A stretch of DNA of 64,000 nt from Branchiostoma lanceolatum (taxonomy: Eukaryota; Chordata; Leptocardii; Amphioxiformes; Branchiostomatidae). A program made the position numbers and the translations under genes. This document shows positions 20,388 through 63,774 of the stretch, in pieces. The stretch's first letter is position 1. The number at the start of each line of letters is the position of its first letter. The notes below the pieces were generated by a model. That model ran no database searches. It was not told the origin of the DNA and saw nothing but the letters and a program-made list of their open reading frames with translations. The stretch covers positions 6,759,383-6,823,382 of the forward strand of contig NC_089732.1 in NCBI RefSeq assembly GCF_035083965.1, read 5' to 3'.

Positions 20388-26542
<6,155 letters not shown>

Positions 26543-29500
26543 ATGGAAGCCAACTCAGCACCAAGTAAAGTAAAGGTATGTAGAATCATCATCATGCATC
26601 ATTATAGACAGATTGATAGATATACGTATTCATTTAAATACTAAGATTTTATTTTATTTCATCTATAGAGGTCAACGACATGTATATAGGATTCCTGTTC
26701 CAAGTCTATCATGTTCCACGACCTCATACTGTATCTTCGCCAAAATTATATATCAAACTGTATTGTTTATGAATATTTCCCATTGATTGTGCAAATAAGG
26801 ACACCAGGTCCTCATTTTATACAAAAAAATATTGTCTCAGTTGATCATCATCTCTACCCAAATATATTACAACACAAGTTGTTAAAAGTTTGGAAGTCTT
26901 ATATTTCTATATAATGTCCTTGTCTCAACAAAAAGTGAGGCTATTGTAGTGTTTCCTCAGAAATGATGTAAACGTGACCCTGATTTTCATAATTTATGTC
27001 TAATAGCATTCACTTAGCTTGGTGATGCTGTATGTGTGAAATTTCCATCATTCACCACCATGGAATTAGTGTTTTCTCATTAATTATGCAAATGAGGTCT
27101 TAATTTGCATAATTGGAATCTATCGACATTCCTCTCTTACTTAATAAGTCAATTACAGTGTTGTCCTGTCAAATGTCCTAGGCCTATGATACAAGGTTAC
27201 TTCTTTTGCCTCCAGATTTTTTTCTGACCTGCAGCCCTGATCAAGATTTCTGTACAATATTAAACATTTCCTTTGTTAATGATTGTGAGCTTTTCACACA
27301 GCACTCCTGTGATCTTATGATTTTTGACATTATTGTTTCAATATACATTGCATGTTCAGACAAAGGTGAGAATTGCGGCTTTCGAATCTTTGCAATGGCT
27401 ACAGACACGACATAGTGGATTACAATATACATATGCATGTAGTTTTCTTTATTCTAAACATAGGCTGTAAAGATCTTGTAACTTGTTTCAGATCGGCATC
27501 ATCGGAGGTTCAGGACTGGACAACCCTGATATCCTGGATAACAGAAGAGAGAAACATGTGGACACCCCCTATGGGAAGGTCAGTAGTCAATGCACCTATC
27601 ATTTAGATTTGCTGTCCTGATACTTTCCCACACTGTTTTCCCACAAGTCTGGGGATTGTTTGGCTTGAATTGCTACACTATCCTAATTTGCATGACAGCT
27701 ATTAATTTTGGCCATATTACTATTATAGTATACAAAACCATGGATCAATGTATTGGTTTAATCAGCAGATAAGAATTGCTAATACAAATGATCAACTGTG
27801 ACCATCTCTTTCAGATCATAATAAAGCATCAGTATGAAACTTATTTTGCATGTTTACTTCCCATAGCCCTCTGATGCCCTGATCTTGGGTGATGTAGGAG
27901 GTGTGGAGTGTGTGCTTCTGGCCAGGTGAGGTGTCCTCTTTAGGAAATGCTGAAAGTAATAGAATATCTCTGCCAATGTTTTATAACTTTTAACCAGCTT
28001 TTGTTCTTTTGGATTGTTGGTTGGTTGTTTGCCATGGTTTGTTTGTTGGTTGGTTGGTTGGTTGGTTGGTTGGTTGGTTGGTTGGTTGGTTGGTTGGTTG
28101 GTTATAAAAAAAACAGGATGATTAAAAAGTTAATAGATATTAAAGATTTTTGTGGCCAGGGAAAAAGAACTTGGCGAGTATCCACACATGCGTTCAATTA
28201 TTTCTGCCAGAAATCTTTTATTAACCTTCTCCCTGCTGAAGTAGCCTTCTGGCACCAAATTTGTATTGGTTACAGGGTTAGGCAGCAGGGAGAAGGCTAA
28301 TGGTGATAACATACTTGTGGAATTCAAGTTCAGGGCTTCATCATTTAGCTGTGACACCCTTAGTTAATGATCATTTTGCTTATGGTTTCAGGCATGGGCG
28401 TGGCCATACTGTGATGCCGACCAACATAAACTTCCGAGCGAACGTCCACGCCCTGAAGACTGAAGGCTGTACTCACCTGATTGTCTCAACAGCCTGCGGG
28501 TCACTCAGGTACTGTAAATACATTTAAGTTGGCGAGGTTTTAATTTCGCGCTAAGGGGAAAATGGAGTGTTTGCGGTTGTTTTAAGTTCGCGGCAGTGCT
28601 ATAGTCACATACTGCTTAAGTATTGAACAAAAATGTTCGCGGTGGTTTTAAGTTTGCGGTCGCCGCAAAAACCATGAACATAAAACCACCGCAAACATTT
28701 CTGCATTTACAGTACTGTACCTGGGTTTTGTGTTCCGTGTTTTATCTATGTTGTAAATGAGGACGTTTTTTAAGTATCCTCAACTCAAAACTATATTTAT
28801 AAATGTTGATGAAGGTCAGACATCCAGCTAGACGATATAGTATACAAATCAAATCAAAATCTATAATAGATTCAGACATTTTAGACACTAGCTAACTGTT
28901 TGACTTATTCAGTCTTATTTGTATACTGTATTATCGACCTAGTTTCAAGTATAAATGACATTCAAGATTATCTTGTAATTGTTGAAATACGAACGTAGGT
29001 GTGACATGTGGTTTTATTGGTAATTCATCTGTTCCCTATGTTTTATCTCAGAGAAGACATCCATCCGGGAGACATGGTCATCCTGGACCAGTTTATTGAT
29101 CGGACGACAAAACGGGCAACAACGTTTTACGACGGCAACCCTGGTAGTCCTGTGGGCGTGTGTCACCTTCCCATGGACACTCCTTTCTGTCCTCACACCA
29201 GAAAAGTATGTTCCCTGAGAGCACCCTCGTGAAACTCTTTTCTTGCCGTACCCTGTAATTTGTGCTGTACCCAACTCACGAGTAACCTGGGTCCCATCCG
29301 ATTACTAGCGGGGCTCCTACACTCCCTGCCCTGAAAAAGGCACCAAGACAAGCTCGCGAGCACTCCATACTACATCTCACTGCCATTTGCATGATGTGTA
29401 CAACGCCAATCGGCAGAGAGGTGGTCAGGAATGTTTGCCTTGGCATCAGCCAATGAGATTGTGTGTTGTTTGCCGTACAGGATGCCTAGACATGACTTTA

Positions 29501-31836: not shown

Positions 31837-31959
31837 CCTTACCAAGAACAGGACCTGCCTTAGTTTTTCTACAGTTAACACACCTGGGGTTTATTACCAT
31901 CTTCGACTGATGACATTAAAGCATGCTCACTTTACAAACTGTACACAAGAGGGTTAATC

Positions 31960-32410
31960 AGAAATGCTCAACTCGGATTTTGGGACATAACTACAAAGCT
32001 TCTGTCAGTGTCCACCAAATTTCAAATCACTGCCTCACCAACTGATGATTTAAAGTTTGGTGGACATTGATAGAAGTTGTTGTTGTTGTTGTTGTTCACC
32101 TTGTATGCTGTAGTGCCTAGTGGTACATAGGGCAGAAGTTTCCTTACTGTTTCTGTAGCCGGGTATATATTTTACAGGGAGGGGTTGCTAGCCCTTCCCC
32201 TTCAATTTGCTCGAGGCACCACCTCGAACATGGGACCCCAATTTATGTCCCTTCCGAAAGATAGGTGCAGCTCCAACCGAGATGCCCTACCCAGGACTAA
32301 TTGGACCCAGGAGCTCAACTGTGAGGCTGCTACCAGTTGAGCTACAGGGAGATCCCTCACATTGATAGAAGGCTTTGTAGTTATGTCCCAGAATGTGAGT
32401 TATGCTGCTT
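31960..32410. mobile_element. Hairpin MITE interrupted by a SINE, downstream of MTAP
   Basis: The left arm GGGACATAACTACAAAGCTT...GTCCACCAAA pairs with the right arm TTTGGTGGACATTGATAGAAG, continued after the SINE by GCTTTGTAGTTATGTCCC. Removing the SINE and one target copy restores a clean inverted repeat. Confidence 0.8.
32077..32358 (-). mobile_element. tRNA-derived SINE (282 bp) with perfect 13-bp target duplication
   Basis: Read on the minus strand, the head CTCCCTGTAGCTCAACTGGT carries a Pol III A-box (TAGCTCAACTGG), and GTTCGAGGT resembles a B-box further in. The tail is (CAA)n. ACATTGATAGAAG occurs on both sides (32064-32076 and 32359-32371). The head resembles a tRNA D-arm, but the rest does not fold as a tRNA, so this is a retroposon, not a tRNA gene. 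Confidence 0.8.
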
Positions 32411-33510: not shown

Positions 33511-34235
33511 TTGTATGTGAGTACCATTCAGTACCAGGGACTTACAGTTGTGTGTGGATATCATTCAGTACCAGGGACTGTACAGTTGTTTGTGAATACC
33601 ATTCAGTACCAGGGACTGAACAATTGTGAGTGTGTGTGTGAATACCATTTAGTACCAGGGACTATACAATTGTGTGTGAATACCATTCAGTACCAGGGAC
33701 TGAACAATTGTGAGTGTGTGTGTGAATACCATTTAGTACCAGGGACTATACAATTGTGTGTGAATACCATTCAGTACCAGGGACTGAACAGTTGTTTGTG
33801 AATACCATTCAGTACCAGGGACTGTACAATTGTGAGTGCGTGTGTGAATACCATTTAGTACCAGGGACTATACAATTGTGTGTGAATACCATTCAGTACC
33901 AGGGACTGTACAGTTGTGTGTGAATACCATTCAGTACCAGGGACTGAACAATTGTGAGTGTGTGTGTGAATACCATTCAGTACCAGGGACTATACAATTG
34001 TGTGTGAGTACCATTCAGTACCAGGGACTGAACAATCGTGAGTGTGTGTGTGAATACCATTTAGTACCAGGGACTATACAATTGTGTGTGAATACCATTT
34101 AGTACCAGGGACTATACAATTGTGTGTGAATACCATTCAGTACCAGGGACTGTACAGTTGTGTGTGAATACCATTCAGTACCAGGGACTGTACAATTGTG
34201 TGTGTGTGAATACCATTCAGTATAAGGGACTGAAC
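33511..34235. repeat. 38-bp minisatellite, about 18 units
   Basis: The basic unit is GTGTGTGAATACCATTCAGT followed by ACCAGGGACTGTACAGTT. A longer variant with an added GTGAGTGTGT alternates with it, giving a higher-order pattern. The open frames across it are products of the repeat. Confidence 0.95.
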
Positions 34236-34237
34236 AG

Positions 34238-35810: not shown

Positions 35811-35969
35811 GGCTATTGACAGGATCATCCTGTCAGCAGTGCAATTTCTTTCTACTGCTGACAGGATGATACTGATAGCAGTGCAAATTTTTCTACTGCT
35901 GACAAGATCATCCTGTATTAAAGCAATGCAATTTTTTCTACTGATGACAGGATCATCCTGTCAATAGCC
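35811..35969. mobile_element. Palindrome-cluster element, copy 1
   Basis: Four diverged copies of the palindrome GACAGGATGATCCTGTC, spaced by spacers of the type AGCAGTGCAAATTTTTCTACTGCT. The ends GGCTATTGACAGGAT and ATCCTGTCAATAGCC are exact inverted repeats. See also 46728 and 56533. Confidence 0.85.
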
Positions 35970-41022: not shown

Positions 41023-44000
41023 TCATTGCCCTTGCTGCTCGGCATGCTGCTCCGGAAAGCTGCCTCGGAACCAGGCGGTCACGTCCGTCTTCCCGTGGAT
41101 TCTCGCGAGGTCTCGCGGCGTCTGTCCCCGCCTGTTTTTAGCCCACAGGTCCGCACTCTTGGCGCGTAAGAATTCTAGAATTCTGACGTGACCTTTCGTA
41201 GCGGCAAGGTGTGCCGGCGTCATGTCTTCCTTGTCCTTGACGTCCAAGATTGCGTGGTACTCGAACAGAAGCTTCAGCGACTCTTCCCAGCCGTCGCGCG
41301 CGGCGTCGTGGACGGGCGACAGACCGGTCTCCTCGTCGCGAACGTTCGGGTCGGCGCCGTTCTCCAGTAGTTCCTTCGCGATGAAGTGATGTCCCAACTT
41401 CATCACCTGCAAACGGCAATAGAAATATCACATCCAGATCAAAGAAAAAAATAATCCAATGAGTTGTCGAGAAGCATCGGGTGATATAGCAACAAACCTT
41501 ACGCCTCCATGCATTTGTGGCTCACACTCCGAAAATATACAATAGGTATAGGGCGATCCACTATAAACTCTTGATTTTTGAAGTGGTTGGAATTAGAGGA
41601 GCCTGACACGTAGAAATACATACAGATGAATTTCAAGTGGGGCAACAACGTACTTAGTATGTGAACGTTCAATGAAAAACTAGTTGAAGCGATATCGGAA
41701 AATTGGGCTAAACGCACGACTGAGACTCCAAATCTCGTACGAGTACACACGACGACGATTTACCCGTACTTTTTCCCTGCAATGTTTTCATCACAAGTCT
41801 TTTCTTCTAACTTCGAAGCTTTTAGATCTTTCATATTTGTTTTCTTGTTTTTTTTTTATATTTGTTTTCTTGCTACGGAATAACGGACACATATTTCCTT
41901 GTTCTTCAATACGTCTGTACCGCCAACGTCTTTTGGGGCCTCGCCAACTTTGTAGTTACTAGTAAACCATTTGTCGGCATGCTAATGTTGTATGATTGCT
42001 AATGTTTCAGGAAAAGTATCTCCTACAGATAAATCGACTGGAACAAAACATCCGTAAAATGATGCATAGGACGATCGTTTGTTTTGACAATCAAACTCAA
42101 AAGAAACTTGACACTGCAACTGAATAAGGATTTGGGGGAAAATTTGAATCTAAACTGTATCTACTACGCACCGTTACATCTAACGGTTCTGTCTAGACTA
42201 GTTGGGAAATGTCGTGCTGGTGCTATAATTCTTGATCCTGAAAATCGGTGCAAAACAAAGCCATTTCGAAACACGTATACATTACAGTTATATATACACA
42301 GCAACAATAAATTCACAGAAAAAACGTTGAAAGATTCAGTCATTTCCGGCAACCTCCAGATTCAAAGTCAGAAAGCTCAAAACTTTTGCATAATATAATG
42401 CTTCAAAATGAAGTAAAATTGACTCAAAGGTAAGCGCAAGAAGATAGCATCGATATGTGTAGAATACCTTGTAGTTACCCTACTATATACACTGTACCAC
42501 CTGTTTGAGTTAGCATTAGGTTGTGGTCGCTTACGAGACCACATACATACACACAGCCAGGCAGTCATGCAAGTACCTACCATTCAACTCTATAGAATAA
42601 ATCTGCAATGTTCGACATCATGAAAACCGGAACAGCGTTTTTACAACAAAGCACACACCGCACATAAAAGTCGTATATAAAAGTACCACACGTCGGTGAA
42701 GGTTACGCATCCAGGTAATAAGATACGCCAAATAGCAGTTACTGAAGCAATTGAATAGAATTTGGAAACGGTCAAACGTTTCAAGTAGCATCCACTACTT
42801 TTCGTCAAATTCACTAACGAAAAGAAGTGGATACTACTTGAAACGTCTGACCGTTTCTAAAATCATACCCAGTTGATTGAGTAACTGTTATTTGGCGTAA
42901 AAGCACAAGACTTGTTCTTACACTTCGGGTATTGTTATCTAAACTGGCCACCATATTTATGTTAGCCCCTTGTGTAAACATCATCTCCTCGAAATATTCT
43001 GTAGCAACTAGATCAAGTGTTAGATTGCCATGTTCATTTTGATATCTAACTCAAACATAATTCAGTCACACAGTATTGTATTACACAATACACGTTATTG
43101 TTCCTACAACACAGCGGTATTCATCAAACGGTTTTCGTCTAAGACGAATCAAGCCGTACAATATCTCAATATTTATGTCTTACTGAAAGGACTATAAATG
43201 CATTTCAGGGCCATATAATAAAATAAACGCTTAGTTGTTTGCACAATTTGCCAACATGGCTAAGGCCTTTAGCAGATAGCATAGTTTTTGGCAGGTGCAC
43301 ATGCTAATGTCTTGGAGATGACCAACTGCTCAAATATTTCCTATTTTTCTGCTTTACTTAGTACGATGACATCCATATCTATGGATGATACGTAAGGACT
43401 ATACCTCTAACGTGATATCACTGTTTGTTTGCTATATAAGCGTTTGTCCAACATAGAGGATCCTGCTATATTACTAGCGTAGTTGTGTGGCATAAGGTAG
43501 TGGCATATAGTTAAAATTTAGGAACATAAGATGTTCAGTACAGCTCTTCAACTGTTTTCATGCGATCCACGCATATTGTAATGTTTCGCCTACTCAGACA
43601 ACGATATGCGGTAAACCATGCTTCTTACACTAAGACGAACACAACAAGAAGAACTTTTCTACCTCGGATTTGTAACGGATGTAGCGAAAGTTGCTGTAAT
43701 GAATTGAGTAAGCTGGCCACAAAACTGAGTCATTTTAAAAGACGACTTGATTACCAACCGATTTTGACCTCTAAATGAGTGGTTGAGTTTTGGCTCTATG
43801 TGCTGCGTGGTGAAACAGACCAGTGTGAGTAGACCAGATCTACATTAGCCTCTACCAGACTAACCACGCCGGATTTGCCAGGGAAGGTTGGCCACCAGAG
43901 GGTTTCATTCGCAGGCGCGGGGAAAATATTAACTTTACCGTGGACTGACTCTACTGACCAATTATTCCCTTTTTTGCCGAATTCTACGACCCATACCCCC

Positions 44001-50000: not shown

Positions 50001-50466
50001 CAGATAGCTCCCCGGCCTTGTGGGCTGCGTTAGTCTGACGCGGGTTGAAGTGTAAACCAAAGGCCGGGTGAGTTATGATTCCTGCTGCCCGACACGCGCG
50101 TCGCGTTCTGTAGCATGGCGTCCCAACCCCTGCCAAGTTCTGCCGACGCGTCTGCTCTAAATCACGCCACGATCCACATAACGTCCAGCCTCAGCATTCA
50201 GGATCTTTAAAAAGTGTATTAGTAGGAAAAAAAGTAAGACCTACCTGTATCGCAGTCATCCCGTGCTGGTTTTGAGCGTTGACGTCGACTCCTACTTCTA
50301 AGAGTCGCCGTACTTCGTCCAGGTCGCCTCTGGCCGCGGCGGTTGTCAGGTCGTTGCCGTCGTTGATGGCATGGAAGCCGGCCGCCGGCGCTTGTACCGC
50401 TTGGCCACCGGCTGCTCCTTCAGGAGAACTGGTCCCAGCTTCTCCGGCGGCCCCGTTGTGAGCCAT
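41023..50466 (-). CDS. CDKN2: INK4-type cyclin-dependent kinase inhibitor (2 exons, 201 aa, five ankyrin repeats)
   Basis: Exon 1 is 50245-50466 and exon 2 is 41023-41406 (222+384 bases), joined in phase 0 across an 8.8-kb intron. The ATG at 50466 has GGGGATGG context; the frame reaches 50562, but the codon there is GTG. Residues 1-36 are Gly/Ala/Pro-rich. Ankyrin repeats span about 39-71, 70-102, 103-135, 136-168 and 169-190. [22 protein letters not shown], the junction [19 protein letters not shown] (HDAAR at 107-111) and [10 protein letters not shown] match the INK4 family. Five repeats resemble p18/p19 rather than p15/p16, and the junction is where vertebrate INK4 genes split. INK4 proteins bind CDK4/6, block cyclin D kinase activity and keep RB active. 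The neighbours MTAP and FAF1 match those of vertebrate paralogues. Confidence 0.93.
42695..42900. mobile_element. Hairpin MITE, GAAGGTTAGACATCCAG family, copy in CDKN2 intron
   Basis: ACGCCAAATAGCAGTTACTG, AAACGGTCAAACGTTTCAAG and TAGCATCCACT on the left pair with AGTGGATACTACTTGAAACG, TCTGACCGTTTC and AGTAACTGTTATTTGGCGT on the right. It is the same family as 30919-31125. The right end is truncated. Confidence 0.85.
43846..44024 (-). mobile_element. Two-copy MITE, copy 2
   Basis: Reverse-orientation relative of 1608-1808. Ends TAGCCTCTACCAG and CTGGTGGAGGCTA form inverted repeats. Confidence 0.7.
45150..45421. repeat. Tandem duplication of a 135-bp unit
   Basis: AGTGAGCCAAAA...CATGGGTTAACGGTTAAATTTCCAAGT...TTCAGAACATTTT recurs immediately with about 15-20 percent divergence. 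Confidence 0.8.
46207..46575. mobile_element. MITE with TTAA flank, copy 2
   Basis: Full-length relative of 36433-36795. The left flank is TTAA and the right flank has lost it (GGTTTCC|ACGT). The ends AGGCAACCAAATCAATATTA and CTAATATTGCTTGGGTTTCC are inverted. Confidence 0.85.
46728..46881. mobile_element. Palindrome-cluster element, copy 2
   Basis: Four palindromes of the GACAGGATGATCCTGTC type. The last has the mirror core (GGATCATCC) and mirror spacers, so the whole cluster is an inverted repeat as well. The ends are GGCTATTGGCAGGAT and GATCATCCTGTCTATAGTC. Confidence 0.85.
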
Positions 50467-50581
50467 CCCCCGTCGAGGAGACCCCGTACCTCTCACGGGG
50501 TCCTCTCGCCTTTCTCCTACACCCGGCGTCTTGCCTGTCGTCCGAGTGACAATGCTTCTCACAAAAATACAGTCACGTGTG

Positions 50582-50613
50582 GACTTCCGCTACTTCCCCC
50601 TCCCCGCGATTGG
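50582..50613 (-). promoter_or_regulatory. CDKN2 proximal promoter motifs: inverted CCAAT, two ETS-like sites
   Basis: Read on the minus strand, CCAATCGCGGGGAGGGGGAA is followed by GTAGCGGAAGTCC. This gives a CCAAT box, a GC-rich stretch and two GGAAGT ETS cores about 115-145 bp upstream of the ATG at 50466. ETS factors are known activators of human p16. Binding here is inferred. Confidence 0.45.
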
Positions 50614-51744
50614 ATGGGGTGCACTCGAGTCGTTCCTTTTTTGTAGCGTCACCTTCTAAACAGTACGCTTTACTACGAGACGATTTGTGAGCTTCTCGCT
50701 TGTCACTTACGGCACGTTACTTCTTAAAGTGTTTGTCATGCCCATAAAAACATTACGTCATCAAACAACGTGCAGACTTGTAAGTCTATTGACGTCTTCC
50801 ATTCATATTTGACTTCTCCGCTCGGTGAAAGCGTACACTAAAATATCCTCTTGTTTACCTTTGGTGCGAAAGTTCTGTGTCTTCTTACCGCGTTGTCCTA
50901 TCAGTTCGGAGTCTCTGAAGACGTTATCGCACGATAACAGCCCGTTTCCTTGACAACGCGACAATATTTCGATCCTGACGAAAACTGGCCGGCGGTTTTG
51001 CCGTCAGGTTTTGAAACTGTGAGCCCGATGGCTGGCGTCCACCTGTATGGCGAGGCTCGCAGCGGGAGAGCTGACACAGTCAATGCAACAGATAATTGCC
51101 CCCAGCTTGACCTGCAGCTCCGCGACCTCGCAGTACCCGCACAGGGCACCGTCTGAACTTTCGTCTCCGCTGCCTACCTTGTACCCGCACAGCTCCGATT
51201 CTGCCAAAATACCAGCTCAATCAAATAGTTTGTAAAGATAAAAGAGTACGACGTCTCTCAATACCGTATCGATGTTCTTGAATGTGCTTGACAGGGGTCA
51301 CCGAAACATGTCATCAGACTGGTTCTATGACTCTAGTAGTAGTACTCTCGGGTTGGCGCCATAATTTGACTACCGGTGTTCTGCGGTCGGTGAAGGACTC
51401 TTCTGGTGCTTTTATGTTTTGCTGAAGGTTATGAGTTCGATTCCCAGGGCGCTATAAAGTTGTTCAGTAGAGTTGACACAGATAATAAGGTGTTGACAAG
51501 GCTGAACTGTCTCCACCCGCTGTGAGTTGTATCCTTCTCAGACGTGTTCTGACATCTGTAGTAATGTGCTCTGTCTGTGCCTTGCTTCTGATCGTATTTC
51601 TTGTCAATCCGGTCGGCTTCTCTTATAATTGCTTAATGTACGCTACATGGAAAGTACGTTAAGTGTCCTCTGGCCACTGGACGACTGTCCTATGTGTAGC
51701 CTGGCGCCTTAGATGTCTAGTAGAGGGAACGCAATTATCTCTAC
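50614..51744. other. CDKN2 upstream sequence
   Basis: No gene is supported. A Cys-rich minus-strand frame at 51004-51207 lacks an ATG. Confidence 0.5.
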
Positions 51745-51921
51745 CTGGATATCGTCTGTGGTCGGGACTAGCTGACACCAGTCTTTCCCCGGCAGCCCCG
51801 AAAGTCTATCCCGCAGAAAGCGACGTTTGTTGGTAGCGCGACCTTCCCGTAGCCAAGCTGAACGTCGACGCCTGAAGTCACCTGCGTGTCCCTTTAAATA
51901 CGTGTCGCCTCCTCCGTCCAT
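51745..51921 (-). CDS. Putative alternative first coding exon (59 codons), upstream of CDKN2
   Basis: The frame starts MDGGGDTYLKGHAGDF at an ATG in perfect Kozak context (ACCATGG, 51921). It has an Arg/Lys-rich middle (FRRRRSAWLREGRA, NKRRFLRDRL) and ends TTDDIQ at a donor CAG|GTAGAG in phase 0. The frame would close 12 codons into the intron. Phase and the terminal Gln match CDKN2 exon 1, so splicing to 41406 would give a 186-residue protein lacking the first ankyrin repeat. The position, upstream of the normal exon 1 on the same strand, recalls exon 1-beta (ARF) of CDKN2A, but here the reading frame would be shared. It could instead begin an unrelated gene or be chance. Confidence 0.35.
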
Positions 51922-52587
51922 GGTATTCAAATGGAGCGGGCAGACCCGGGCACGTCCCGCTGTCGGGTGCCGGATTGGCCGAGACCCCGGTCCGCGTGGG
52001 GCGGTCTCGGATGTATCCCGTTCCCGCCTTCCCGTACAAAATTTCAGCCGTGCTGCCAAAGGAGAGTTGCCCCGGTAATATCGCAACTTGTCTTATCCGT
52101 ACAGCTTTTTGGGCGCGGATCATAAAGCCATTCAAAGCGATCAAATGACCATTAGGGCAGAAAAAAGCTCCATCTATAAGCAAGCGTGCCCACGGCGCAG
52201 GTGAACAGCAACAGATAACGTCATCGCGTACCTTCTAAAAATAGACGACGCTATACATGCCGTAAAACGAGGTAGATAACATGGGACAGTCGTAAAATAT
52301 AGCTGTCGTAAAACACGCATATCTCGCACGTATTTTGTACATGCGTAACGCTAAACTACAATGGAACGCCCCGAAAAGGGGTGATATTTTTCTCTTTGTA
52401 TTTTGATATCAATATTTCGCCATACAGTTTCGTATCAAAGTCATTAGAGAGTATTTTAGAATATGTTTCTTTCATGTCATTACAGCATACTGTTCTTATA
52501 AGATTCGTTACTTTACTGGAATAGTTATATATTTTATTTATTTTCCCCACATAGTCTGTGGTATGTTCACTTGCATCATAAACAACA
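51922..52587. promoter_or_regulatory. FAF1 upstream region (divergent from CDKN2)
   Basis: The CDKN2 and FAF1 start codons are 2.1 kb apart in head-to-head orientation. The ATG of FAF1 is embedded in AACAATGGCGGCGGAC, a YY1-type start motif. No TATA box is evident. The rest is AT-rich and unremarkable. Confidence 0.45.
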
Positions 52588-55500
52588 ATGGCGGCGGACA
52601 GGGAGATGATTCTGGCCGATTTTCAGGTACTTTTTGGTCAAATTTGAAGCAAAAACAGCGTCATGTGTGTACCATTTTAACGTCATCGGCTGTCAACAAA
52701 ATAAGAAATCGATTCATAATCATGATATGAACTCGTTCCCTCTGGATTTTGGGCGATGACGTGTTTTTTTCTTGGTTGAAGAAGAAGGCACTGGAAGCCA
52801 TGTCTTTGTCATTCAGTCGCAGTCCGCAGACAACATGCATGCATGACGTCTACAAGACCCCAGACTTGTCCTGACTGCATATTGAACGATCTCGTAGCCA
52901 TTCGTTTTCCTTTTGATGTCTGGAAACGATTCAGTATCGCTAAACAGTCGTATAGTCCGTGCAAAGAGTTCGCAAACACGCTTTTCCAATCTTCCGTGCC
53001 AGACAAAAATGGGTAAGGGGAAAACCCTGTATAGGTACCCGTACCCGTATACCTGTATAGGTATACCGGTATACCCCATTTGGGGCCCCGACAAGCCAGG
53101 AAACACGCTATGACGGCCGCCATATGGGGCACCCAGAACGGCTTTTTTTTACGGTCTCCACATTGATATAAGACACCGTGAAACAGTTGACTATACTCGG
53201 TCAGAAAATAGCTGAACCATCATATTGTACGATCTTTTGATTTCTATGAAGGACAGAGTTTTGGAATATGCGACGTTCGTACGGAGCTCCTGTCAGAACG
53301 TGCGAGCACCAATCTCGGAGACCTTTTAACTAAACCTGTTCTGAAAAGAAATAGAAAAAAACACTCAAACTATCAACCTTTCCGCATTTCATTATCTTCA
53401 GATGCAATACTCATGATCTGTTTGGCTGGAGCTGCCAGTAAACCTGCGTAAAACCTACAGAAAACGCCCGGTTCTCGATGCATGTTACGCGCCGAAATGA
53501 CCACTTTATATATTGCGACACAAACATTACGGCCATTCGGCGTGATTTGTCTGAATATGCCGTGCTCGGTCTCTGTCTTTAGCGTGAGGTGTTTCCTGTA
53601 GGTTTTCCGTATTAAACCTTTTCAGAACGGGTTCAGTTGAAAGGTCTCCGAGATCGGTGCTCGCACGTTCTGACAGGAGCTCCGTACGAACTTCGCAAAT
53701 TCCGTATATTCCAAAACTCCGTCCTTCATAGAAATCAAAAGATCATAAAATATGATTGTTCAGCTATTTTCTGACCGAGTATAGTCAACTGTTTCACGGT
53801 GTCTTATCATATCAATGTGGAGACCGTAAAAAAAAAGCCGTTCTGGGTGCCCCATATGGCGGCCGTCATAGCGTGTTTCCTGGCTTGTTGGGGCCCCAAA
53901 TGGGGTATACCGGTATACCTATACGGGGACCTATACGGGTACGGGTACCTATACAGGGTTTTCCCCTTACCCGACAAAAATATGCATGTGCGATTGGTCT
54001 CCAACTTACAGTAACTTTCCCATCGTATATATTCAAAGATACCCCGGAGAAATATTACTACTAGTGCATGTATCTTTATCTGAAGTAGGCTCACTAAAGA
54101 AAGGGGGCAGGAAATCTTTAAATCTCTGTCTTAATTTAAAGTTCACATCGCTAAGTAAAAGGAGATGTTATTTTAAGGGTTGGAAAAACAGCTGATTACA
54201 TAATGATGATTAATCGTTATATATGCTACATATTTTCTGAGATGACAAACAGGCCTTTTATTTGGATTCACTTGGGAATTACTGGGTTTGTAAACGTTGG
54301 AATATACATCTTTGTAAACTTCATTGGTTCTAGATTCATTACTTCAGCATAAGGTATCAAGAGACAGTTTATCTCATTCTCATAAAACCTTCAAGCAAAG
54401 CAGATTACATCACATGTATGCCATAGAAATCAAACAAAATCTATTCCTATGAATGAAACATATGTATTGGAAATACTGAATGAAGAAACTAAGAAAGAAA
54501 TTGTTCTTTTGTCAATACATGTATCACACTTTCCATTTTGTTGCACCAAGGAGGTTTAACCTTCTTGGTTGCACTTCATTGAAACTTGAAAGACACAGAA
54601 GAGACAGTTTGAATTAAAATCTGATGTACAGTGGCAAATACATCAAAAGACTAGCAACCTTTAATCAAGTGTATTGAACAGCTCTACAAGTAAAAATGAG
54701 TCTTTGGGACAAAAACATAAGTTTATTACTACACAGTACAGCATATTTCTCTTGCAAAGTTAGATTGCAAACTTACAAAACAGTACGTGTAAGTTCCATA
54801 CTCACACAGTGTGAAATGCAGATGTAAAGTTGAATGAGTCATTAGATGGTATGACAGCACGACATGTCCAAATCCCTCTAGCCCGATAACCTCCGAGATT
54901 CCTGCCACTGTTACAGCAACAAGGGAGACATTCCGATGTCCTGACATCTAACATAGACACAGGACATGACACACATTCCCACCAACTCCACAATTCCAAG
55001 TATGCGTATTTGTAGGTTTTGTCCATTTCATCCCTTACCCTGGATTAACAGATTCAAGTCAATTCAAATCTAATTCAAGTGCTACTTTCACACAGTTGGC
55101 TGAGGCAGTAGTAGAATCATGTGGAATTCCATATTTGTACAATTTCAACATCTATCAAGAAGATGGTAAAGTTATCAATTAAATGGGACCACTAACCTCA
55201 ATGACAATGGACAATGTAGATTTCTACAGCGTGAAAGCAATGACAATGTTGTTATATCCTAATTAGAGTCATGTGAAAGGTATTTGTTCAGAGTAAGCTG
55301 TCTCAAAAGCTGCTTATCTTCAAATTGCTGGCCATTTAAGGGATGAGCGACATGGAATGTATTGTGTGCGATTTGTCATGTACCCACTTCATCTTACCAA
55401 ATGTCCTTTATAGATTAGCATAGTGAAAAGATTGTTGGAAATAGGTGTCATTATGAATTACGGCTTATACAGAAGCTGAGTATGAATTGTCGTTGCGTAT

Positions 55501-58500
55501 GATGTTATTTGGGTCCAAACGTAAGCCTGTGATTATGCTCATTTTTCAGCAATTGGCATACCTGATGCATGACAACATTCCCTGTGATTCTTAGGGTGGT
55601 CTCTAATTATGTGTCTTTGACATTGGTTATTTGGCAAATACTGAAATAGTAGTGGACAACCTCAAGCCAATCGTTCACACTCATGTCATATCTTCAGAAA
55701 AGACATTGTTGCTGCCTAGTTCCCGTTGAGAACTTCATTTGAGCCCACACCAACTAGTTTCACCTTGTGTGTGGCTTTTTCAAGGATCAGAGCTCAAATG
55801 AGTGCAAGCACAGTGTGTTCTGGGTTTTATAGGCCAGGTGCAAAGTGCCCTAGGTGGCTTAACCAATCACAGTTCAGCAAATATCAAGTAGTGCACTCTG
55901 CTCAGTGCACTGGCATTTGACATTGGTTATTGTTGCAGAGAAAGCCTTACATGACTTTTTCCTTAACTGGTGTTGTATACTGTGTGCATAGGTTGTTTGG
56001 CCATGGTTTGGGTTCAGTGCTGTTGTATCTCATATTCAGAGATTTCCTGAAAAGGAAAAATACAGTCCCTAATGGGATATGGACAAAAGAACAATGTTAT
56101 TGAATGGTATCGCATAGGTGATAATGTAAATCATGAAATTTCTGTGGTGGTTTTACATTTGTGGTTACTGCAGTACTCTTACTGCAAACTTATCACACCA
56201 CAAACATGTACCCTATCTGGCATTTTGATACCAATGTTGTTTCTGCCACCAACTAAAAACATGTGATTCACTGTGAACACCTGCTTCCCAATCTACTACA
56301 AAATTAAGTCCCGGCAAGGTTATATCAGTTTACATTACTGGTACTTTCTCATTTAGTAACTTCTGAGAAACTGTGAACTTACATTTTTCATCATCGCATC
56401 CTAGAATACAACAGAGAACATTACAAACGATAGCACTAGAAATATTGTGAATGCATTGTTTTGGATTAACTAAAAGGGAAAGAAAATGAGAAGTGCAGGT
56501 GAGATTTGTCTAGTGCAGGTACTTGCAAAGGGGACATGATGATCCTGTCAGCAGTTGAAAAATGTGCACTATTGACAGGATGATCCTGTCAGCAGTGGAA
56601 AATTTGCACTATTGACAGGATGATCCTGTCAGCAGTAGACAAATTTGCACTATTGACAGGATGATCCTGTCAGCAGTAGACAAATTTACACTATTGACAG
56701 GATGATCCTGTCATCATTTGAAAATTTGTACTGTTGACAGGATGACCCTGTCAGTAGTGGAAAATGTGTACTATTATTGACAGAACGATCCTGTCAACAG
56801 TGAATTTTCCGCTGTTGACAGGATCATCCTGTCAATAGTGCACATTTTTCCACTGCTGACAGGATCATCCTGTCAATAGTGCACATTTTTCCATTCTAGA
56901 ACATAAGTACAGTATCTGTTTTCGGATATTTTTGCAATTTACGGCATGTACTCGCTCATTTTGCAGCTGCTTTGTACGATTTGCCGTATGATCACAAACT
57001 TTTCTCCTTTTTTTGGAAACGGATAAAAATTGATGTATTTTATTCAACCCATCTCAAAAGGAATACACACCTTCACATAGGAGTAGAATGCAAAGCCTTT
57101 GTCAGGTTTTATTTTATTTCAGAATATGGCTAATTTTGTTGAATATTACATTATACACTAACTGATATATCATATTTACACTTTGTTTCCAGGCTTGTAC
57201 AGGGATAGAGAACATAGACGAAGCGATCACATTACTGGAACAGAATGACTGGAATCTTGTGGTAAGTATGAAGGTTTTGTAGTGACGACTTTACTACTTT
57301 TACTTCTTCATTACTAAATGTTTATTGTATACAGAAAATATTAATTTTTTTGACTTCGAGGTATGATATTTGAAGGTTCAAAAATTCTTAATGTGAATTG
57401 CATCAGGCTGTGGCGGTGGAAGCGGAACAGGCTTATTTTTGTTTTCAAAGTTTTGTTATCGCCAGGCATGTGCCGTTTTGTCAAATTCGATATGCTTGTC
57501 GCGCTGGATAGTCGCCACCGCAAGCCATATTTGGTAAAGGGTCGTCTTGTTTTCGGTTCTCTTAGCCGTGAAGAGGAAGTAGCCAAAGGATTGGCACATT
57601 TCTGCTTTATACAACTATTTGAATATGGCAAATTAGTTGATCAGATTTTCTTTTTTCTTTTCATCAAGAATTGTTGTAGATAGCAAGAGCCTTTCGTCTT
57701 GAAAATTTTATATGTGGTCAGACTGCAATAATTCATATGCAGTAGAATGAACAGGATATTGTGGTATTGTTAAAAGGATGTTCCCACGGTTAGGGCAGGG
57801 CCTTGTCAGAGTTTTATTCCGTGCGGAGCATGGCGTCGTGCCAATGGAATTCAACGCCATTACATCACCTTCCATAGCGTCTGTGCGCTCAGTGCGAAAT
57901 TCCCTTCAGGATACGCTATCGGAAAAGCGTATGATGGAAATATGCTAACAGATGTTTATTCTTGCGGATATTTTTGAGATACCGCACTTTGCGGTAAAAG
58001 CCTTTGATTTGGCGAGAACTTCTGCTAGCGTACTGGGAAACTGTCCGGAAAAACGTGTTGATTGCGTTAGTAGGAACGGATGTGCGGTCGGACGAATATG
58101 CGGAAACCGGAACGGCGCCTATCATCTTTGCTACCCTTTACTAAACCCGTTCGATAAAGGGGGGAAGTTCCAGTCACAATGCCACCCACCCACACAAAAA
58201 TGCTGTTTTCAATATTTTCTTTATGTTGGCAAATGAATGGTACGTACTACAAGTAACTGTAAGAGTTACCAAGTACCGCAAACAAAATGAATAAAAAGGA
58301 AATGGCAAAAATATTTTTTTCATATGGAGCAAGACATGTAGACTTGTTGTCTTTCTTGCAGCACTAATGACTAAATTTCGCTCCTGGTAGCAGCCCACCC
58401 AACTGACTGACCCAATTAAACCCTTACAGCGAGAGATTTTAGAACACAGACAGAGACTACATTGTAGAACGTTTATGATGAATGACAATAATTGTGAACT

Positions 58501-61500
58501 TAAGGTACAAACTGATGCAAATGGTACTTTGATGCTTAGATCCACATGTGTTGTTTTGTTTTCCTGTGTCTTCAAACCAGGCTGCTATCAATGGAGTCCT
58601 CCCAGAAGAACCCATGCAACAGGCCCCCAGCGTTCCCGAGGTTCCCCCGCCTCTAGTAGAAAGGTGAGATACATCTAACACAAAGTCACGCTTATGATCT
58701 TTCTTTTCTGTGTAAAAGAATGTCCGCATTTCCATCCACACACTACTCAGTACTGTGAATGCAAAAAAATAAGTGGGGACTTAATTTGGCGGTAGGGATA
58801 AAATGGAGTGTTCGCAGTACTTTTGAGTTCGCATTTGAACCAAGAGTAACGCATTTCCATCCACACACTACTGTAAATGCAGAAATGTTTGTGGGGATTT
58901 AATTTCGCGGTAGGAGAAAATGGAGTGTTCGCAGTGCTTTTGAGTTTGCGTTTGAACCAAGAGTAACGCTACAGTCACACAATGGAACGGATTTTTGCTG
59001 TGGTTTTAATTTAAGTTCGTGGTTAAGAGTTCACCGCGAAAACTGCAAACATAAATCACCACAAACATTTCTGCATTTACAGTATCTTAGAAGTGGCAAT
59101 GATGTCGGACACAGTCTCCATTGTTTTGAAACTCCATCTTTCATGTGTGAAATAATATAAAGCTATGTTTGTATGAAGAATTCTAAGAAGGTTGAAAGTT
59201 TAGACTGGTAATCACTAGATTTGGGAAGTTGTAATGGGAAGGATACAAACCCACCCTTTCCTCCAACATCTTTCCTATCACAACAGGAGGATGTGTACTT
59301 CTGGTCTTTTATAGTCTATACACTCATGCTGTACTGTATTGTCCTATGGAGTAATACTATGCTTTTTCTGGTCCTGTATTTCTGACACAAGCCCAAAAAA
59401 AGTCTTAGACACAAAGACGTTTTTGCAGAATAGGGACACTGCAACTAGCCTGAGTGTCATTCTAGTTAGTTCCGGGGCTCCCATACTCTCCCATTCACTG
59501 TATGGGTGCCCTGGAACTAACTAGGATGACACTCAGGTTATACTGCAACATTCTTGTAGATTCAAGTTTAGTAACAATAACCTGTCACAAGTTTTAACAA
59601 TTGATATTTTCGTTCACGTGTTCTCCAGTCCTGACTTATCAGTAGTTGGACAACAACTACAAGCAATGGCGGGGACGTCCACGTTAGGGTCGCCATGGGA
59701 ACCAGTGATGGCAGGCCCCATGATGCGGCCGACACCCCGCATGTTAGAGTTCAAAGTGGAGTACAGGGAAAGAACAGTGGACGTCATGCTAGACGATACC
59801 AGTACTGTAGGTGGGTTGGATGATTACGGCAGGATGATTTTCCATCATCTCTGTTTGTTTGTTTATTTATTTGTTTGTTTTATTTAGATCTTTTTTTTGA
59901 ACATTTCTTTAGTCAGTTTTTTAACAGAAACAAAGAAAGGCTTCCTGTGTTGAATATGCAATGTACATGCATGTTCTCATTGCTAGTGGTATATACCATT
60001 GGCCATGTTTACATGCTCAAGTCCAAAGGCCTTTGATTTTGTTTCAAAGTCTGCATAAAAGGATCAAGCAGCATGAAGTTAGTTCTGCAGTCTTTATTCA
60101 GGTGCAGGTATTTAAAGCTTTTGTGCAGGTATTTAAAGCTTTTAGTGAGTGTAATACGAGCTAGCATTTCACCCCAACATTTTCACAAACCTATTGAAGA
60201 TGATCACAAACTACATGTATTTCAAAGAAACCGCATGATGATTTGAGAAAGCCATGTTGACTTTCCAGTCGACTTGTTTTTAAGAGGCTCTTATACTTCG
60301 TGCTTCCACATAAAAGGAGTCCCACACATCAAAGGATGTCATTGAGAACTGGTATTGTCTGTCCAAGCCAATGAGATCCCACCTGTGATTATGCCTTGTT
60401 CTCGTAGCATGACGTCATTACACAGCGTGTGAACCCCCTAAGGCTAGCACTGACACTTAGAAGGGTACGAAATAAGAACAAGATACGTTTGACTTGAAGG
60501 AACTGATCTTATAATCACTTGGAAGTACTCCAGGCCAAGGGTTCAAACAAGGGCTCGCCCCTGACAAGAGAATATTCCAAGGAATAATTGAGTTGTCTTT
60601 ATAATTAGTTTTTAAGACAGGCAGCCAGGTGCTTGTGATATTGTGTAACAGTCCTGTCAATATACATTGGAGAGGAACACAAAGGGACCTTTATGATCAA
60701 AATGTGCGGAGATGTATTCATACTCATGCACTGTTTTGTTTTTACTGAATTTTTTCATGTGCTGTGGCAGGACAATTATTATACGGAAAAAAAGTTTTGT
60801 CGAATAAGGACATTCTTTTATCAAGTTCAACAGCAGTATCTTGATACAAGGAGCGAAACATGCAAGAAACTTGAATAAGAAGTGAACTTGTTAATGAACA
60901 GAAGACATATGTATTTATATCATTGGACAATTTTGAATTATTTTACAACTAGACCTTGAATAAATTGAAGAAAAACTCATTTGAGTGTTAGAGAGAATAT
61001 TTATTCTGTACAGGCTAACATGTAAACACAGCTGTGCCATACAAAGAAAATCTATCACATTGGCCCTTGTAGCAGAGATACATGTATGGCCCTGGGTCTA
61101 TTAGTATTGCAGTAAAAGGCTCAAGGCCTCTGATGCTTCATTGGGTTTCCTTGTAGCTTCAGGCATCAGGGCAGAAAATCCTTGACAGGAAGGACACTGG
61201 AGTCTTCGTTTACAGTTCAAACGTTCATTCGATATCTGTAGAATGATGGTTGTTCTGACACCCCCTCCCCCATCTGTCTGTATCCCCCCTCAGGTAATAT
61301 TAAGGAGGTTTTACAAGCAGAACTGGGGATTCCCACAGACCAGCAACACCTGCGAGGGTTCAGCCAGGAGGAACCTGATGATGTGAGTATAGTTTGATGG
61401 ACAGAAATATAAGTCTTGTTTCTTCAGTGGATTCTCTTTACTGTAATTCTTGTGTCTTTCACTGTTACTTAATGTTTCACTGTTTTCACGATCACCTCTT

Positions 61501-63774
61501 TACCATGAACTTATCATCACGGTGAAAAAACTGTTGTTATTCTTTTAAAGTTCAGTGAAAATTGCAATTTTCCTTACACCGTGACATTTTGCTACTGTAA
61601 AGATAAAGTGAATTACAATATCCTAGCTACATGTATATAGCCTGGTATCTAAACCTATCATACTATCTGCTAAGTCTTTTTCGTCTTCTCTATGATAGTT
61701 TTATATACCAGGCTAGGTACCGGTCTATTGTTAGCTTCCTGCGATTTTGTCAGTACTGCAAAGTGACTCTGCAGCCCCTAATCAGTTTTGATACACCCTT
61801 TTACAGTCAGACAAATTTGTTGCTTGTAGGCAAATCTCCTAATTATTTAGTCCATTGCCTGTTTGAAACCTTTTCCCAGTCCAAGCAGTCACTAACTCAA
61901 GCAGACCACATCTCGGCTTTGTTAAACTGTCTCTCTCACAGCTTGTTCGTTTGCAAAGACAAAGAGGCTCTTTGTGTGTGCTTGTAATTCAATCCTGGAT
62001 CCCTGCTAGATTCATTCAAGGAGGTCCTTGATTCATTTGAGCTAAGTGATTGTTGAGAGGCCAGTTAGCACTCCAAATATCAGCTGTTCTAAAAGGCTAA
62101 GTCGCAATTGCTCCAGACAGGGAGGAGTCTAATTAGATTAGCCTTATTATCCAATGAGGTTAACTCTGGGAGATAGTTTTCCCCATCATACAGGCTGGGC
62201 CGAACCATATCAGGTTAGGGGGGTTGTAGAATTGTGTGCAAGAGTGTTGCATTAAACAGTAGCAGTTTTAACCAAGTATGTGTTTTCATTTTTGTCTGTA
62301 ACATATTCTGATGTGCTTACGAATTAGAAATAATTACCACATTGAAAGTGTTGATTTTTCTCATGTCTTAGGCTGTCCTGTCTAGTTTGAATCTTCCAAG
62401 AGAGAACCGGCTCTTTCTGTTGACCCCTGACCTCCCCGTGGCTTCAGGGTCAGGGTCACAAGAAGTGGATGGAGAAAGGTAAGTTGAGGAGCATCCATTG
62501 CTATGTTTTCCATGCATGATATAATATATGTACTGTGTCAGATTGTTATCTGTCTCGAGTGTTGACTGGTCAGTAGGTATGTCAGGCAAGGAGGTAACAT
62601 ATTCACTGGCTTGAAGTAGCTGTTGGTGAACTGGTTTGGACAAGGATGTTTCAAAATGTTTTATATCTATTTTGATGGAATGTTCTTTGTTGTAGATAGG
62701 CATAAACTTAAATGCAAATGGACTTAATCTATTGCTTAACTTTTTGGGAAAATCTCTATCTGTATGCAGGTCCAGGAATTCAAGTTTTCCTAATCAGCAC
62801 TGTAGTTGAAAAGTTTGGAAACTACAGCTTCGATAGAGTCCATTCCGAGTCACCGCGAGGGTTTTATAATAATATTTGTAATCATTTTGAAAAATTTTTA
62901 ATAAAAGAATATCTGACTGACAATAGTTCTAAATTTTTCTAAAAGATCAAATACAAAAATATGAATTTATTTGAATTTAATTAGATAATTTAAAAATATT
63001 TTGAAAGTAACTGCACAAAAACCTCTTTATTTGTAATAATTTCTAAACATCTATGTGATTATTTAACTTTTAGAAATATTAACAAGAAATGGTAGAAAAT
63101 GGTTAACAATGGTAGAATGGTGATTGCCCCCATAAAAGTAGGTGCTAATCTGGCCCTTCTGTCTGCCTTTGTACATCTTTAGACTTCACTGCAGGACACT
63201 GTTGGGTCCTTTGTGCAAAGCATTCTTCCCTAAACTTCGCAAGGATGTGTGAATTGCTTTCTTCCCAGCCCTCTGACCTATTTATAGAGATTTTACAAAT
63301 AATGGTAGAAAATGGTAAGAAATTGTAAAAAATTGTAAATAATGGTAGAATGCTGTTACCATTATTTAGAAACCATTGTAAATATCATATTCTACATCAT
63401 GAATATTTCTAAAGTTTTAGAAAACGTAAGAAATATTTAGAATGTTGAAATCACATGCAAAATATTTCAAAAGTATCAAATCTCTTACACAAATAATAAC
63501 AATAACTTGAAAATAGTTCTAAATTATGACAATAACAACCCTCGCGGTGACTTGGAATGGACTCTATGCTATTTAGGTTTCCAAGAGTTTTACTATTTGA
63601 TAATCCACCATGCAGTTATTCACATGCTTATGAATCACTTGTTATATTTACATGTACCCTTCTTGCAGCATTACTCTTGAAAGGATGCTCCTAGAGTTCA
63701 AACTTAATGTGGTAGATGTAGACAAGGGGATCGAGTACAATCTCCATTTCCCAGGCAGCCGTACCATCCACCAG
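52588..63774 (+). CDS. FAF1: FAS-associated factor 1 (FAF1), first 7 exons, continues past the right edge
   Basis: Exons are 52588-52626, 57193-57261, 58581-58663, 59629-59810, 61294-61382, 62372-62478 and 63669-63774: 675 bases, 225 codons, in frame. FAF1 is a UBX-type cofactor of the p97/VCP segregase and acts in ubiquitin-dependent degradation and death-receptor signalling. The UBA domain (residues 1-45) reads MAADREMILADFQ, ACTGIENIDEAITLLEQNDW and AAINGV, almost as in human. A low-complexity linker precedes the first ubiquitin-like domain, which starts near residue 101 (RMLEFKVEYRERTVDVMLDD) and ends near FLLTPDLP. The second begins in exon 7 (LEFKLNVVDVDKGIEYNLHF). UAS and UBX domains would lie beyond the window. 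The 4.6-kb first intron carries a foldback transposon and a palindrome cluster. It is divergent from CDKN2, as in human FAF1/CDKN2C. Confidence 0.97.
53011..53972. mobile_element. 962-bp foldback transposon with perfect 9-bp target duplication
   Basis: Arms of about 345 bp are inverted around a loop of about 270 bp. The ends are GGGTAAGGGGAAAACCCTGT and its complement. GACAAAAAT flanks both sides (53002-53010 and 53973-53981). The arms contain GTACCC/GTATAC-rich subrepeats and match closely to near 53345 and 53615. No transposase frame is present. A 9-bp duplication with long inverted arms is typical of Mutator-like (MULE) elements. Confidence 0.92.
56533..56893. mobile_element. Palindrome-cluster element, copy 3 (nine palindromes)
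   Basis: GACAGGATGATCCTGTC or close variants start at 56533, 56574, 56614, 56655, 56696, 56736, 56779, 56817 and 56858, a period of about 41 bp. The last two carry the mirror core GGATCATCC and mirror spacers (AATAGTGCACATTTTTCCACT), so orientation flips inside the array. It lies in FAF1 intron 1. Confidence 0.93.
57363..58140. other. Unrecognised sequence of different composition in FAF1 intron 2
   Basis: Richer in GC and CG than the flanking intron, with a 106-codon plus-strand frame at 57363-57683. Neither frame nor DNA resembles a family I know. It may be an old transposon fragment. Confidence 0.3.
58751..59085. mobile_element. MITE with TACTGTAAAT ends, internally duplicated, in FAF1 intron 3
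   Basis: The left half (TACTGTGAATGC...GGAGTGTTCGCAGT...TTTGAACCAAGAGTAACGC) occurs twice, the second time from 58870. The flank CATTTCCATCCACACACTAC is also duplicated before each. The right end is ACCACAAACATTTCTGCATT and TACAGTA. Relative of 28510-28715. Confidence 0.8.
59446..59540. mobile_element. Hairpin element of 95 bp in FAF1 intron 3
   Basis: AGCCTGAGTGTCATTCTAGT with TAGTTCCGGGGC...CCATAC on the left is mirrored by GTATGGGTGCCCTGGAACTA and CTAGGATGACACTCAGGTT on the right. Stem about 40 bp, loop about 15. Confidence 0.9.
61638..61716. repeat. Small hairpin (TAGCCTGGTAT...ATACCAGGCTA)
   Basis: Arms of about 24 bp with a few mismatches in FAF1 intron 5, probably a MITE remnant. Confidence 0.7.
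62833..63567. mobile_element. 735-bp AT-rich DNA transposon with TIRs of about 31 bp in FAF1 intron 6
   Basis: The left end ATAGAGTCCATTCCGAGTCA with CCGCGAGGGTT is mirrored by AACCCTCGCGGTGA and CTTGGAATGGACTCTAT, with one mismatch. The interior is very AT-rich with GGTAGAAAATGGT-type repeats and no coding frame. It is a non-autonomous element. Confidence 0.88.

What the first reader, a model, noticed from the sequence alone, without database searches (positions are those of the whole stretch)
26543..63774. One locus carries both human INK4 neighbourhoods: MTAP - CDKN2 - FAF1
Seen: MTAP on plus, a single INK4 gene on minus (convergent with MTAP), then FAF1 on plus (divergent from INK4). Known: in human, MTAP and CDKN2A/B are adjacent and convergent on 9p21, while CDKN2C and FAF1 are adjacent and divergent on 1p32. 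Inferred: this is the pre-duplication arrangement, and 9p21 and 1p32 are its descendants, each having kept one flank. It would mean the MTAP-CDKN2A link, often co-deleted in tumours, is older than vertebrates.
Basis: partly seen in the sequence, partly recalled or inferred. Interest (0 to 1): 0.93.

Follow-up and report, generated by a model that had tools for sequence, protein, structure and literature searches.

The report
Undivided ancestor of two INK4 neighbourhoods
In this animal, probably a lancelet, one small stretch of DNA holds in a single row three genes that humans keep on two different chromosomes around their p16 and p18 tumour-suppressor genes, which looks like the arrangement from before the vertebrate genome was duplicated.

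Summary
MTAP lies on plus (26543 to at least 30398), one five-repeat INK4 gene on minus (50466-50245, 41406-41023), and FAF1 on plus from 52588 past the window's end, with no N. INK4 is convergent with MTAP and divergent from FAF1, as at human 9p21 and 1p32 (human strands and CDKN2C-FAF1 adjacency recalled). Best reading: an unduplicated locus from which 9p21 and 1p32 each kept one flank.

Added support: the INK4 protein is mosaic, with the fifth repeat of p18/p19 and a loop residue otherwise seen only in p15/p16. CAPSL (human chromosome 5, recalled) lies left of MTAP, so the recognised genes point to human chromosomes 1, 5, 9 and 19, the four that a published amphioxus scaffold matches best.

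Not settled: the INK4 tree (mammals only) is unresolved, no other species' gene order could be read, and the lancelet source is inferred. The kind of finding (quadruple conserved synteny) is known; my paper searches found no description of this trio. Corollary: a FAF1 copy was probably lost where the human 9p21.3 gene desert now lies.

The parts
26543..30398 (+). MTAP (methylthioadenosine phosphorylase): exons 26543-26575, 27492-27578, 27867-27925, 28392-28508, 29052-29205, 29782-30024, 30276-30398; last short coding exon not found
   Evidence: tblastn; single splice solution; PDB human MTAP E 1e-118; Pfam PNP_UDP_1
50245..50466 (-). INK4 exon 1 (74 codons, ends after a Gln codon, GT donor, phase 0)
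41023..41406 (-). INK4 exon 2 (127 codons plus stop; ankyrin repeats 2 to 5)
   Evidence: PDB p18 135.6 bits, p19 117.1 bits; Pfam ankyrin
50467..52587 (.). Head-to-head INK4/FAF1 intergenic region, about 2.1 kb between start codons; CpG o/e 1.20, 0.94 and 1.28 in the 1-kb bins of 50-53 kb (bins elsewhere in the window are as high)
52588..63774 (+). FAF1, N-terminal part: exons 52588-52626, 57193-57261, 58581-58655 (one of three splice solutions, chosen by agreement with human FAF1); further coding blocks near 59630-59811, 61293-61382, 62373-62478, 63669-63777 (edges approximate, no script solution for the first three of these); gene continues beyond the window
   Evidence: tblastn; DNA; PDB FAF1 E 5e-53; Pfam UBA-like
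20388..25600 (-). CAPSL (calcyphosine-like) gene, head-to-head with MTAP (943 bp between start codons): exons 25600-25464, 24831-24654, 24301-24098, and two possible last exons, 21995-21894 or 20489-20388
   Evidence: tblastn; one splice solution with each last exon; PDB calcyphosin-like E 1.3e-96
3131..6706 (-). Second CAPSL-like gene: coding blocks about 6706-6644, 4413-4237, 3851-3621, 3229-3131 (edges approximate; N-terminus not found)
   Evidence: tblastn; Pfam EF-hand
582..713 (-). N-terminal coding exon of a third CAPSL-like gene (edges approximate), rest not in the window or not found
   Evidence: tblastn

Best explanation
The locus is the unduplicated form of one piece of an old chordate chromosome: CAPSL(-) MTAP(+) INK4(-) FAF1(+). 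In stem vertebrates the piece was copied by whole-genome duplication. The copy on human 9p21 kept MTAP and INK4 (later tandem-duplicated into CDKN2A/B) and lost FAF1. The copy on 1p32 kept INK4 (CDKN2C) and FAF1 and lost MTAP. The 19p13 copy kept only CDKN2D of the three, and the chromosome-5 copy kept CAPSL but no INK4. The gene itself most likely encodes a five-ankyrin-repeat inhibitor of CDK4/6. The INK4-FAF1 pair probably shares a head-to-head promoter region. Shown here: genes, order, strands, splice structure, INK4-type protein features. Inferred: duplication history, CDK binding, shared promoter, lancelet source.
For: Gene identities. INK4 exon boundary Gln | Val, phase 0, the same place as human p16 c.150/151 (recalled). 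All 7 INK4 rows (window, p15 x2, p16, p18, p19 x2) share a one-residue deletion in repeat 2 that both DARPin outgroups lack; the branch between the 7 and the 2 has 100/100 support. Mosaic: the window gene has the fifth repeat of p18/p19 and the extra loop residue before HDAAR found in the three p15/p16 rows but not in p18, p19 or the DARPins (alignment). Human side: p15, p16, MTAP in that order on 9p21, INK4C on 1p32, INK4D on 19p13 (PMC5644615, passages). dmrt4-elavl2 and dmrt5 with elavl4 and faf1 are conserved between fish, reptile and human (PMC7689362, passages). An amphioxus scaffold matches human chr1, 5, 9 and 19: 203 of its 277 genes with clear human orthologues have one on at least one of these (PMC6292497). 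25% (3,950/15,884) of amphioxus neighbouring protein-coding genes are arranged in bidirectional promoters (same paper). Amphioxus chromosomes show extensive internal gene-order rearrangement relative to ancestral linkage groups (PMC7269912, passages), so a surviving ordered trio is informative. Window CpG o/e is 0.72, unlike jawed vertebrates (recalled about 0.2 to 0.3).
Against: The INK4 tree does not place the gene outside the vertebrate paralogues: the best tree joins it to p18, weakly (60/59); joining p15/p16 is not rejected (p-AU 0.143), joining p19 is borderline (0.055). The outgroup is two designed DARPins, and the window protein is not much less like them (59/153 and 60/144 identical) than like the INK4s (54/124 to 72/152). 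No second genome was available, so 'kept' against 'secondarily assembled' rests on parsimony. The extra loop residue taken alone would group the gene with p15/p16. Immediate CDKN2C-FAF1 adjacency, human strands and CAPSL/CAPS positions are recalled, not from a call. CpG-rich bins also occur elsewhere in the window, so they do not by themselves mark a shared promoter.
Confidence: 0.84

Rival explanations
1. Tandem-first model: the ancestral locus was MTAP - INK4(A/B-like) - INK4(C/D-like) - FAF1 before genome duplication; 9p21 kept the MTAP-side copy and 1p32 the FAF1-side copy, and the window species lost or never had the second copy.
For: Explains why the p15/p16 type sits by MTAP and the p18 type by FAF1; PMC5644615 (passage) describes a first split into INK4A/B-like and INK4C/D-like elements and speaks of tandem duplication.
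Against: Only one INK4 gene is seen in the window. DMRTA1/ELAVL2 and DMRTA2/ELAVL4 beside the two human loci (and recall) point to block duplication, which suffices without a tandem step.
Confidence: 0.08
2. The window comes from a vertebrate (for example a jawless one) or another lineage in which 9p21-like and 1p32-like pieces were joined secondarily.
For: The tree weakly joins the gene to p18.
Against: Fusion of two descendant loci would be expected to bring two INK4 genes or other orientations (inference); here one gene has both neighbours in both expected orientations. CpG o/e 0.72 and 64% MTAP identity to human suggest a non-vertebrate.
Confidence: 0.04
3. Chance adjacency or assembly join: the neighbours came together independently or the contig is chimaeric.
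For: No read data or second assembly to check.
Against: 0 N in 64,000 bases; the probability of both neighbours in both orientations is about 2.5e-7 even within one linkage group (assumed gene numbers).
Confidence: 0.02

Closest known systems
Human 9p21 MTAP-CDKN2A/CDKN2B
   Same: MTAP is the gene next to INK4 and convergent with it (strands recalled); INK4 exon 1/2 boundary at the same Gln|Val codons, phase 0 (human boundary recalled); the extra loop residue before HDAAR
   Different: Human has two tandem INK4 genes with four repeats, ARF, and no FAF1 beside them; the window shows one gene with five repeats, no ARF exon match, and FAF1 next to it
Human 1p32 CDKN2C-FAF1
   Same: INK4 and FAF1 adjacent and head-to-head (human side recalled); five ankyrin repeats; highest score to the window protein of the four human INK4s
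   Different: MTAP absent; p18 lacks the extra loop residue; human start sites are closer together (recalled)
Human 19p13 CDKN2D
   Same: Five-repeat INK4, 46% identity
   Different: Neither MTAP nor FAF1 beside it (recalled)
Quadruple conserved synteny of amphioxus with human chromosomes 1, 5, 9 and 19 (PMC6292497, Extended Data Fig. 1h legend)
   Same: The recognised window genes have human counterparts on these chromosomes (FAF1, CAPSL recalled)
   Different: That is a scaffold-wide content match; the main text names none of MTAP, CDKN2 or FAF1

Membership tests
INK4 (CDKN2) family | Ankyrin-repeat protein of INK4 length, closer to INK4 than to generic ankyrins | tested here: met
   p18 135.6 bits and p19 117.1 bits over about 150 aa, against at most 81.8 bits for a single stretch in the five alignments printed (of 385 chains matched), all ankyrins or DARPins; whole-chain ranking is headed by long ankyrin and DARPin chains whose repeats add up, and per-stretch scores of the other chains were not printed. 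Identity margin over DARPins is small
INK4 (CDKN2) family | Shortened second repeat (one-residue deletion against canonical ankyrin) | tested here: met
   Shared by all 7 INK4 rows, absent in both DARPin rows (alignment)
INK4 (CDKN2) family | Exon 1/exon 2 boundary after the Gln of the (I/L)Q-V motif, phase 0 | tested here: met
   human position recalled
INK4 (CDKN2) family | Binding and inhibition of CDK4/6 | not testable with these tools
   HDAAR motif kept, but the FLDT that follows in the six vertebrate rows is WEES here; single-sequence model of exon 2 was poor (pLDDT 57.3) and not used
Unduplicated orthologue of all vertebrate INK4s | Branches outside p15/p16, p18 and p19 | tested here: inconclusive
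   p-AU 0.242 for all vertebrate INK4s held together; best tree has window + p18 at 60/59; mammals only
MTAP | PNP_UDP_1 fold, MTAP rather than PNP | tested here: met
   Pfam 9e-48; 12 of the 13 PDB sequences below 1e-20 are named methylthioadenosine phosphorylase (one of them 'hypothetical') and one RsfP; human MTAP first
FAF1 | N-terminal UBA followed by ubiquitin-like domains, best match FAF1 | tested here: met
   UBA_4 1.6e-8, ubiquitin family only below its cut-off (19.4 against 25.4 bits); PDB FAF1 first at 5e-53
FAF1 | C-terminal UAS and UBX domains | not testable with these tools
   Gene leaves the window after about residue 219 of human FAF1
Vertebrate 1-5-9-19 paralogon, unduplicated side | Genes with human counterparts on these four chromosomes | tested here: met
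ARF | Exon 1-beta and an open alternative frame in exon 2 | tested here: not met
   Human exon 1-beta has no match (best E 0.60); the ARF frame of exon 2 is open for 88 codons, as far as or further in 7.1% of 5,000 synonymous reshuffles; literature: earliest documented ARF is in chicken (PMC4657621, passages)

The most novel reading that the evidence does not exclude
If the ancestral order was MTAP(+) INK4(-) FAF1(+) followed by DMRTA and ELAVL, then the human 9p21.3 gene desert between CDKN2B and DMRTA1, which holds ANRIL and the coronary-risk haplotype, is the site of a lost FAF1 copy. ANRIL starts divergently from the INK4/ARF genes, as FAF1 does from INK4 here (human positions recalled). 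Some enhancers of that desert may descend from elements once inside FAF1 introns, kept after the coding exons decayed.
Probability: 0.25. Interest if true: 0.85.

Novelty: new member of a known kind. Interest (0 to 1): 0.6.

Why it matters
If the source is a non-vertebrate, it dates the MTAP-INK4 linkage, the basis of MTAP/CDKN2A co-deletion in tumours, to before the vertebrate duplications, and makes the origin of the human INK4 loci readable from one locus. It gives a testable origin for the 9p21.3 gene desert and predicts that DMRTA and ELAVL follow FAF1 in this genome.

Tried and rejected
Whole-genome search failed: no genome is held for this window, so DMRTA/ELAVL and the INK4 copy number could not be checked. 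A viral-contig scan with INK4 exon 2 found no relative. The structure prediction of exon 2 alone (one sequence, pLDDT 57.3) was too poor for a fold search and none was made. ARF: no exon 1-beta match, and the open alternative frame is within chance. Pfam on ten ORFs (nine of the left flank, one of the MTAP-INK4 gap) found EF-hands in four; the only other matches, in two, lay below their cut-offs. Rfam at gathering thresholds gave one hit, a histone 3' stem-loop; no tRNA. Shared MTAP intron positions with human were considered but not claimed, because my recall of the human boundaries is not firm. One search, for papers holding at least five of FAF1, CDKN2C, MTAP, CDKN2A, paralog and conserved synteny, for at least three of ANRIL, gene desert, FAF1, DMRTA1 and ohnolog, gave 0 papers; the other eight showed no paper on this trio, judged by titles and abstract openings of the rows listed (in only a part of the papers found). 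Passages of six papers were seen (PMC7689362, PMC3757083, PMC5644615, PMC4657621, PMC6292497, PMC10516590) and of a seventh, PMC7269912; none was read in full. Many subscription papers are not held; Gilley and Fried 2001 was seen only as a reference entry.

Full report
Observation. tblastn with human proteins, inspection of the DNA and splice-site checks give MTAP on plus in seven exons from 26543 to 30398, one INK4 gene on minus in two exons (50466-50245, 41406-41023), and FAF1 on plus from 52588, running off the window. PDB sequence searches name the same genes: human MTAP E 1e-118, human FAF1 E 5e-53, and for INK4 p18 at 135.6 bits and p19 at 117.1 bits. In that last search long ankyrins and DARPins score higher as whole chains because their repeats add up; the best single stretch in the five alignments printed (of 385 chains matched) was 81.8 bits. 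For FAF1 the first three exons had three splice solutions, of which I took the one agreeing with human FAF1, and the script found none for the next three blocks. The sequence has no N. Between MTAP and INK4 and between INK4 and FAF1 no other gene was recognised; 11 ORFs of 90-158 aa, of 259 ORFs of 30 aa or more in the two gaps, were scanned and gave no Pfam family below E 0.01.

What the INK4 gene is. The protein has 201 aa and five ankyrin repeats. It shares with all six vertebrate INK4 rows a one-residue deletion in repeat 2 that both DARPin rows lack, and the branch between the seven INK4 rows and the two DARPins has support 100/100. The DARPins are designed proteins, and identity to them (59/153, 60/144) is only a little below identity to the INK4s (54/124 to 72/152), so the deletion, the intron and the neighbours carry more weight than percent identity. 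The intron lies between Gln and Val in phase 0, as in human p16 (recalled). The protein is mosaic: it has the fifth repeat, present in p18/p19 and lacking in p15/p16, and one extra loop residue before HDAAR, present in p15/p16 and lacking in p18, p19 and the DARPins. That is expected of a gene from before the A/B and C/D types parted, each type having lost one feature; the loop residue alone could also be read as a tie to p15/p16. There is no sign of ARF. That invertebrates have distant Ink4a orthologues is already stated in print (PMC4657621, passage).

The tree. With nine rows (three p15/p16, one p18, two p19, window, two DARPins) the window gene sits beside p18 with 60/59. Held with p15/p16 the p-AU is 0.143, with p19 0.055, and all vertebrate INK4s held together against it 0.242. 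Only mammalian INK4s could be had, and the window row is a long branch.

Human side and reconstruction. On 9p21 the order p15, p16, MTAP, and p18 on 1p32 and p19 on 19p13, are stated in PMC5644615 (passages). Fish and human share dmrt4-elavl2-caap1, and dmrt5 with elavl4 and faf1 (PMC7689362, passages); a study of fish also treats Faf1 as lying within 200 kb of an Elavl4 intron in medaka (PMC10516590, passages). From recall of human coordinates, 9p reads MTAP(+) CDKN2A(-) CDKN2B(-) desert DMRTA1(+) ELAVL2(-), and 1p, turned round, reads CDKN2C(-) FAF1(+) DMRTA2(+) ELAVL4(-). Overlaid, they predict MTAP(+) INK4(-) FAF1(+) DMRTA(+) ELAVL(-). The window shows the first three in exactly that order and orientation and ends before the rest could be tested.

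The left flank. Two CAPSL-like genes and an exon of a third lie on minus to the left of MTAP. The nearest is head-to-head with MTAP, 943 bp between start codons, and has two possible last exons. So the recognised genes point to human chromosomes 1, 5, 9 and 19. PMC6292497 (Extended Data Fig. 1h legend) reports that amphioxus scaffold Sc0000001 shares most orthologues with precisely these four: 203 of 277 genes with clear human orthologues.

Source. CpG o/e of 0.72, 64% MTAP identity to human and a single INK4 in view fit a non-vertebrate deuterostome. I recall repeats of the TACTGTAAAT...TTCGCGGT type as common in lancelets, and such motifs occur here, but that is recall. A hemichordate or echinoderm is not excluded.

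How it most likely works. The protein is probably a CDK4/6 inhibitor (inferred from family; the FLDT of the vertebrate rows is WEES here). INK4 and FAF1 start 2.1 kb apart in opposite directions across CpG-rich DNA, though other bins of the window are as CpG-rich; 25% (3,950/15,884) of amphioxus neighbouring protein-coding genes are arranged in bidirectional promoters (PMC6292497), so a shared promoter region is a reasonable reason for that pair to stay together. For MTAP and INK4 I have no mechanism; neutral retention is enough.

Verdict. The kind of evidence is known (quadruple synteny of amphioxus and human); I found no description of this trio in the paper searches listed under Tried and rejected, and the main texts of PMC7269912 and PMC6292497 contain none of FAF1, CDKN2 or MTAP. 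The boldest corollary is that the 9p21.3 desert with ANRIL marks a lost FAF1 copy; it was not testable here.

Noticed in passing
582-25600, minus strand: Tandem CAPSL-like (calcyphosine-like) genes, at least three, left of MTAP; the one next to MTAP has two possible last exons, each with its own stop (21995-21894 and 20489-20388).
   Followed up: partly
8346-8392 and 8419-9147, minus strand: An Rfam histone 3' stem-loop match (34.4 bits, cut-off 34) lies just after the stop of a 243-aa ORF that has no Pfam match (E up to 0.1) and no convincing PDB match (best E 0.22).
   Followed up: partly
9569-10276, plus strand: A 235-aa ORF with a plausible start (MAEGGLPPRPP...) and no Pfam family above its cut-off; possibly the first exon of an unnamed gene.
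   Followed up: no
53052-53927: Large fold-back element in FAF1 intron 1: three nested inverted-repeat arm pairs, 93-98% complementary, 269 nt between the innermost arms.
   Followed up: no
17678-19524: Tandem array with a 474-nt unit, about 2.8 copies at 97% plus diverged pieces.
   Followed up: no
46737-46874, 56533-56875, 35817-35961: Short arrays of 41-45-nt units containing GACAGGATGATCCTGTC or nearly its reverse complement, in the INK4 intron, FAF1 intron 1 and the MTAP-INK4 gap.
   Followed up: no
41404-41141, minus strand: The frame used by mammalian ARF is open for 88 codons in INK4 exon 2; 7.1% of 5,000 synonymous reshuffles reach as far.
   Followed up: yes
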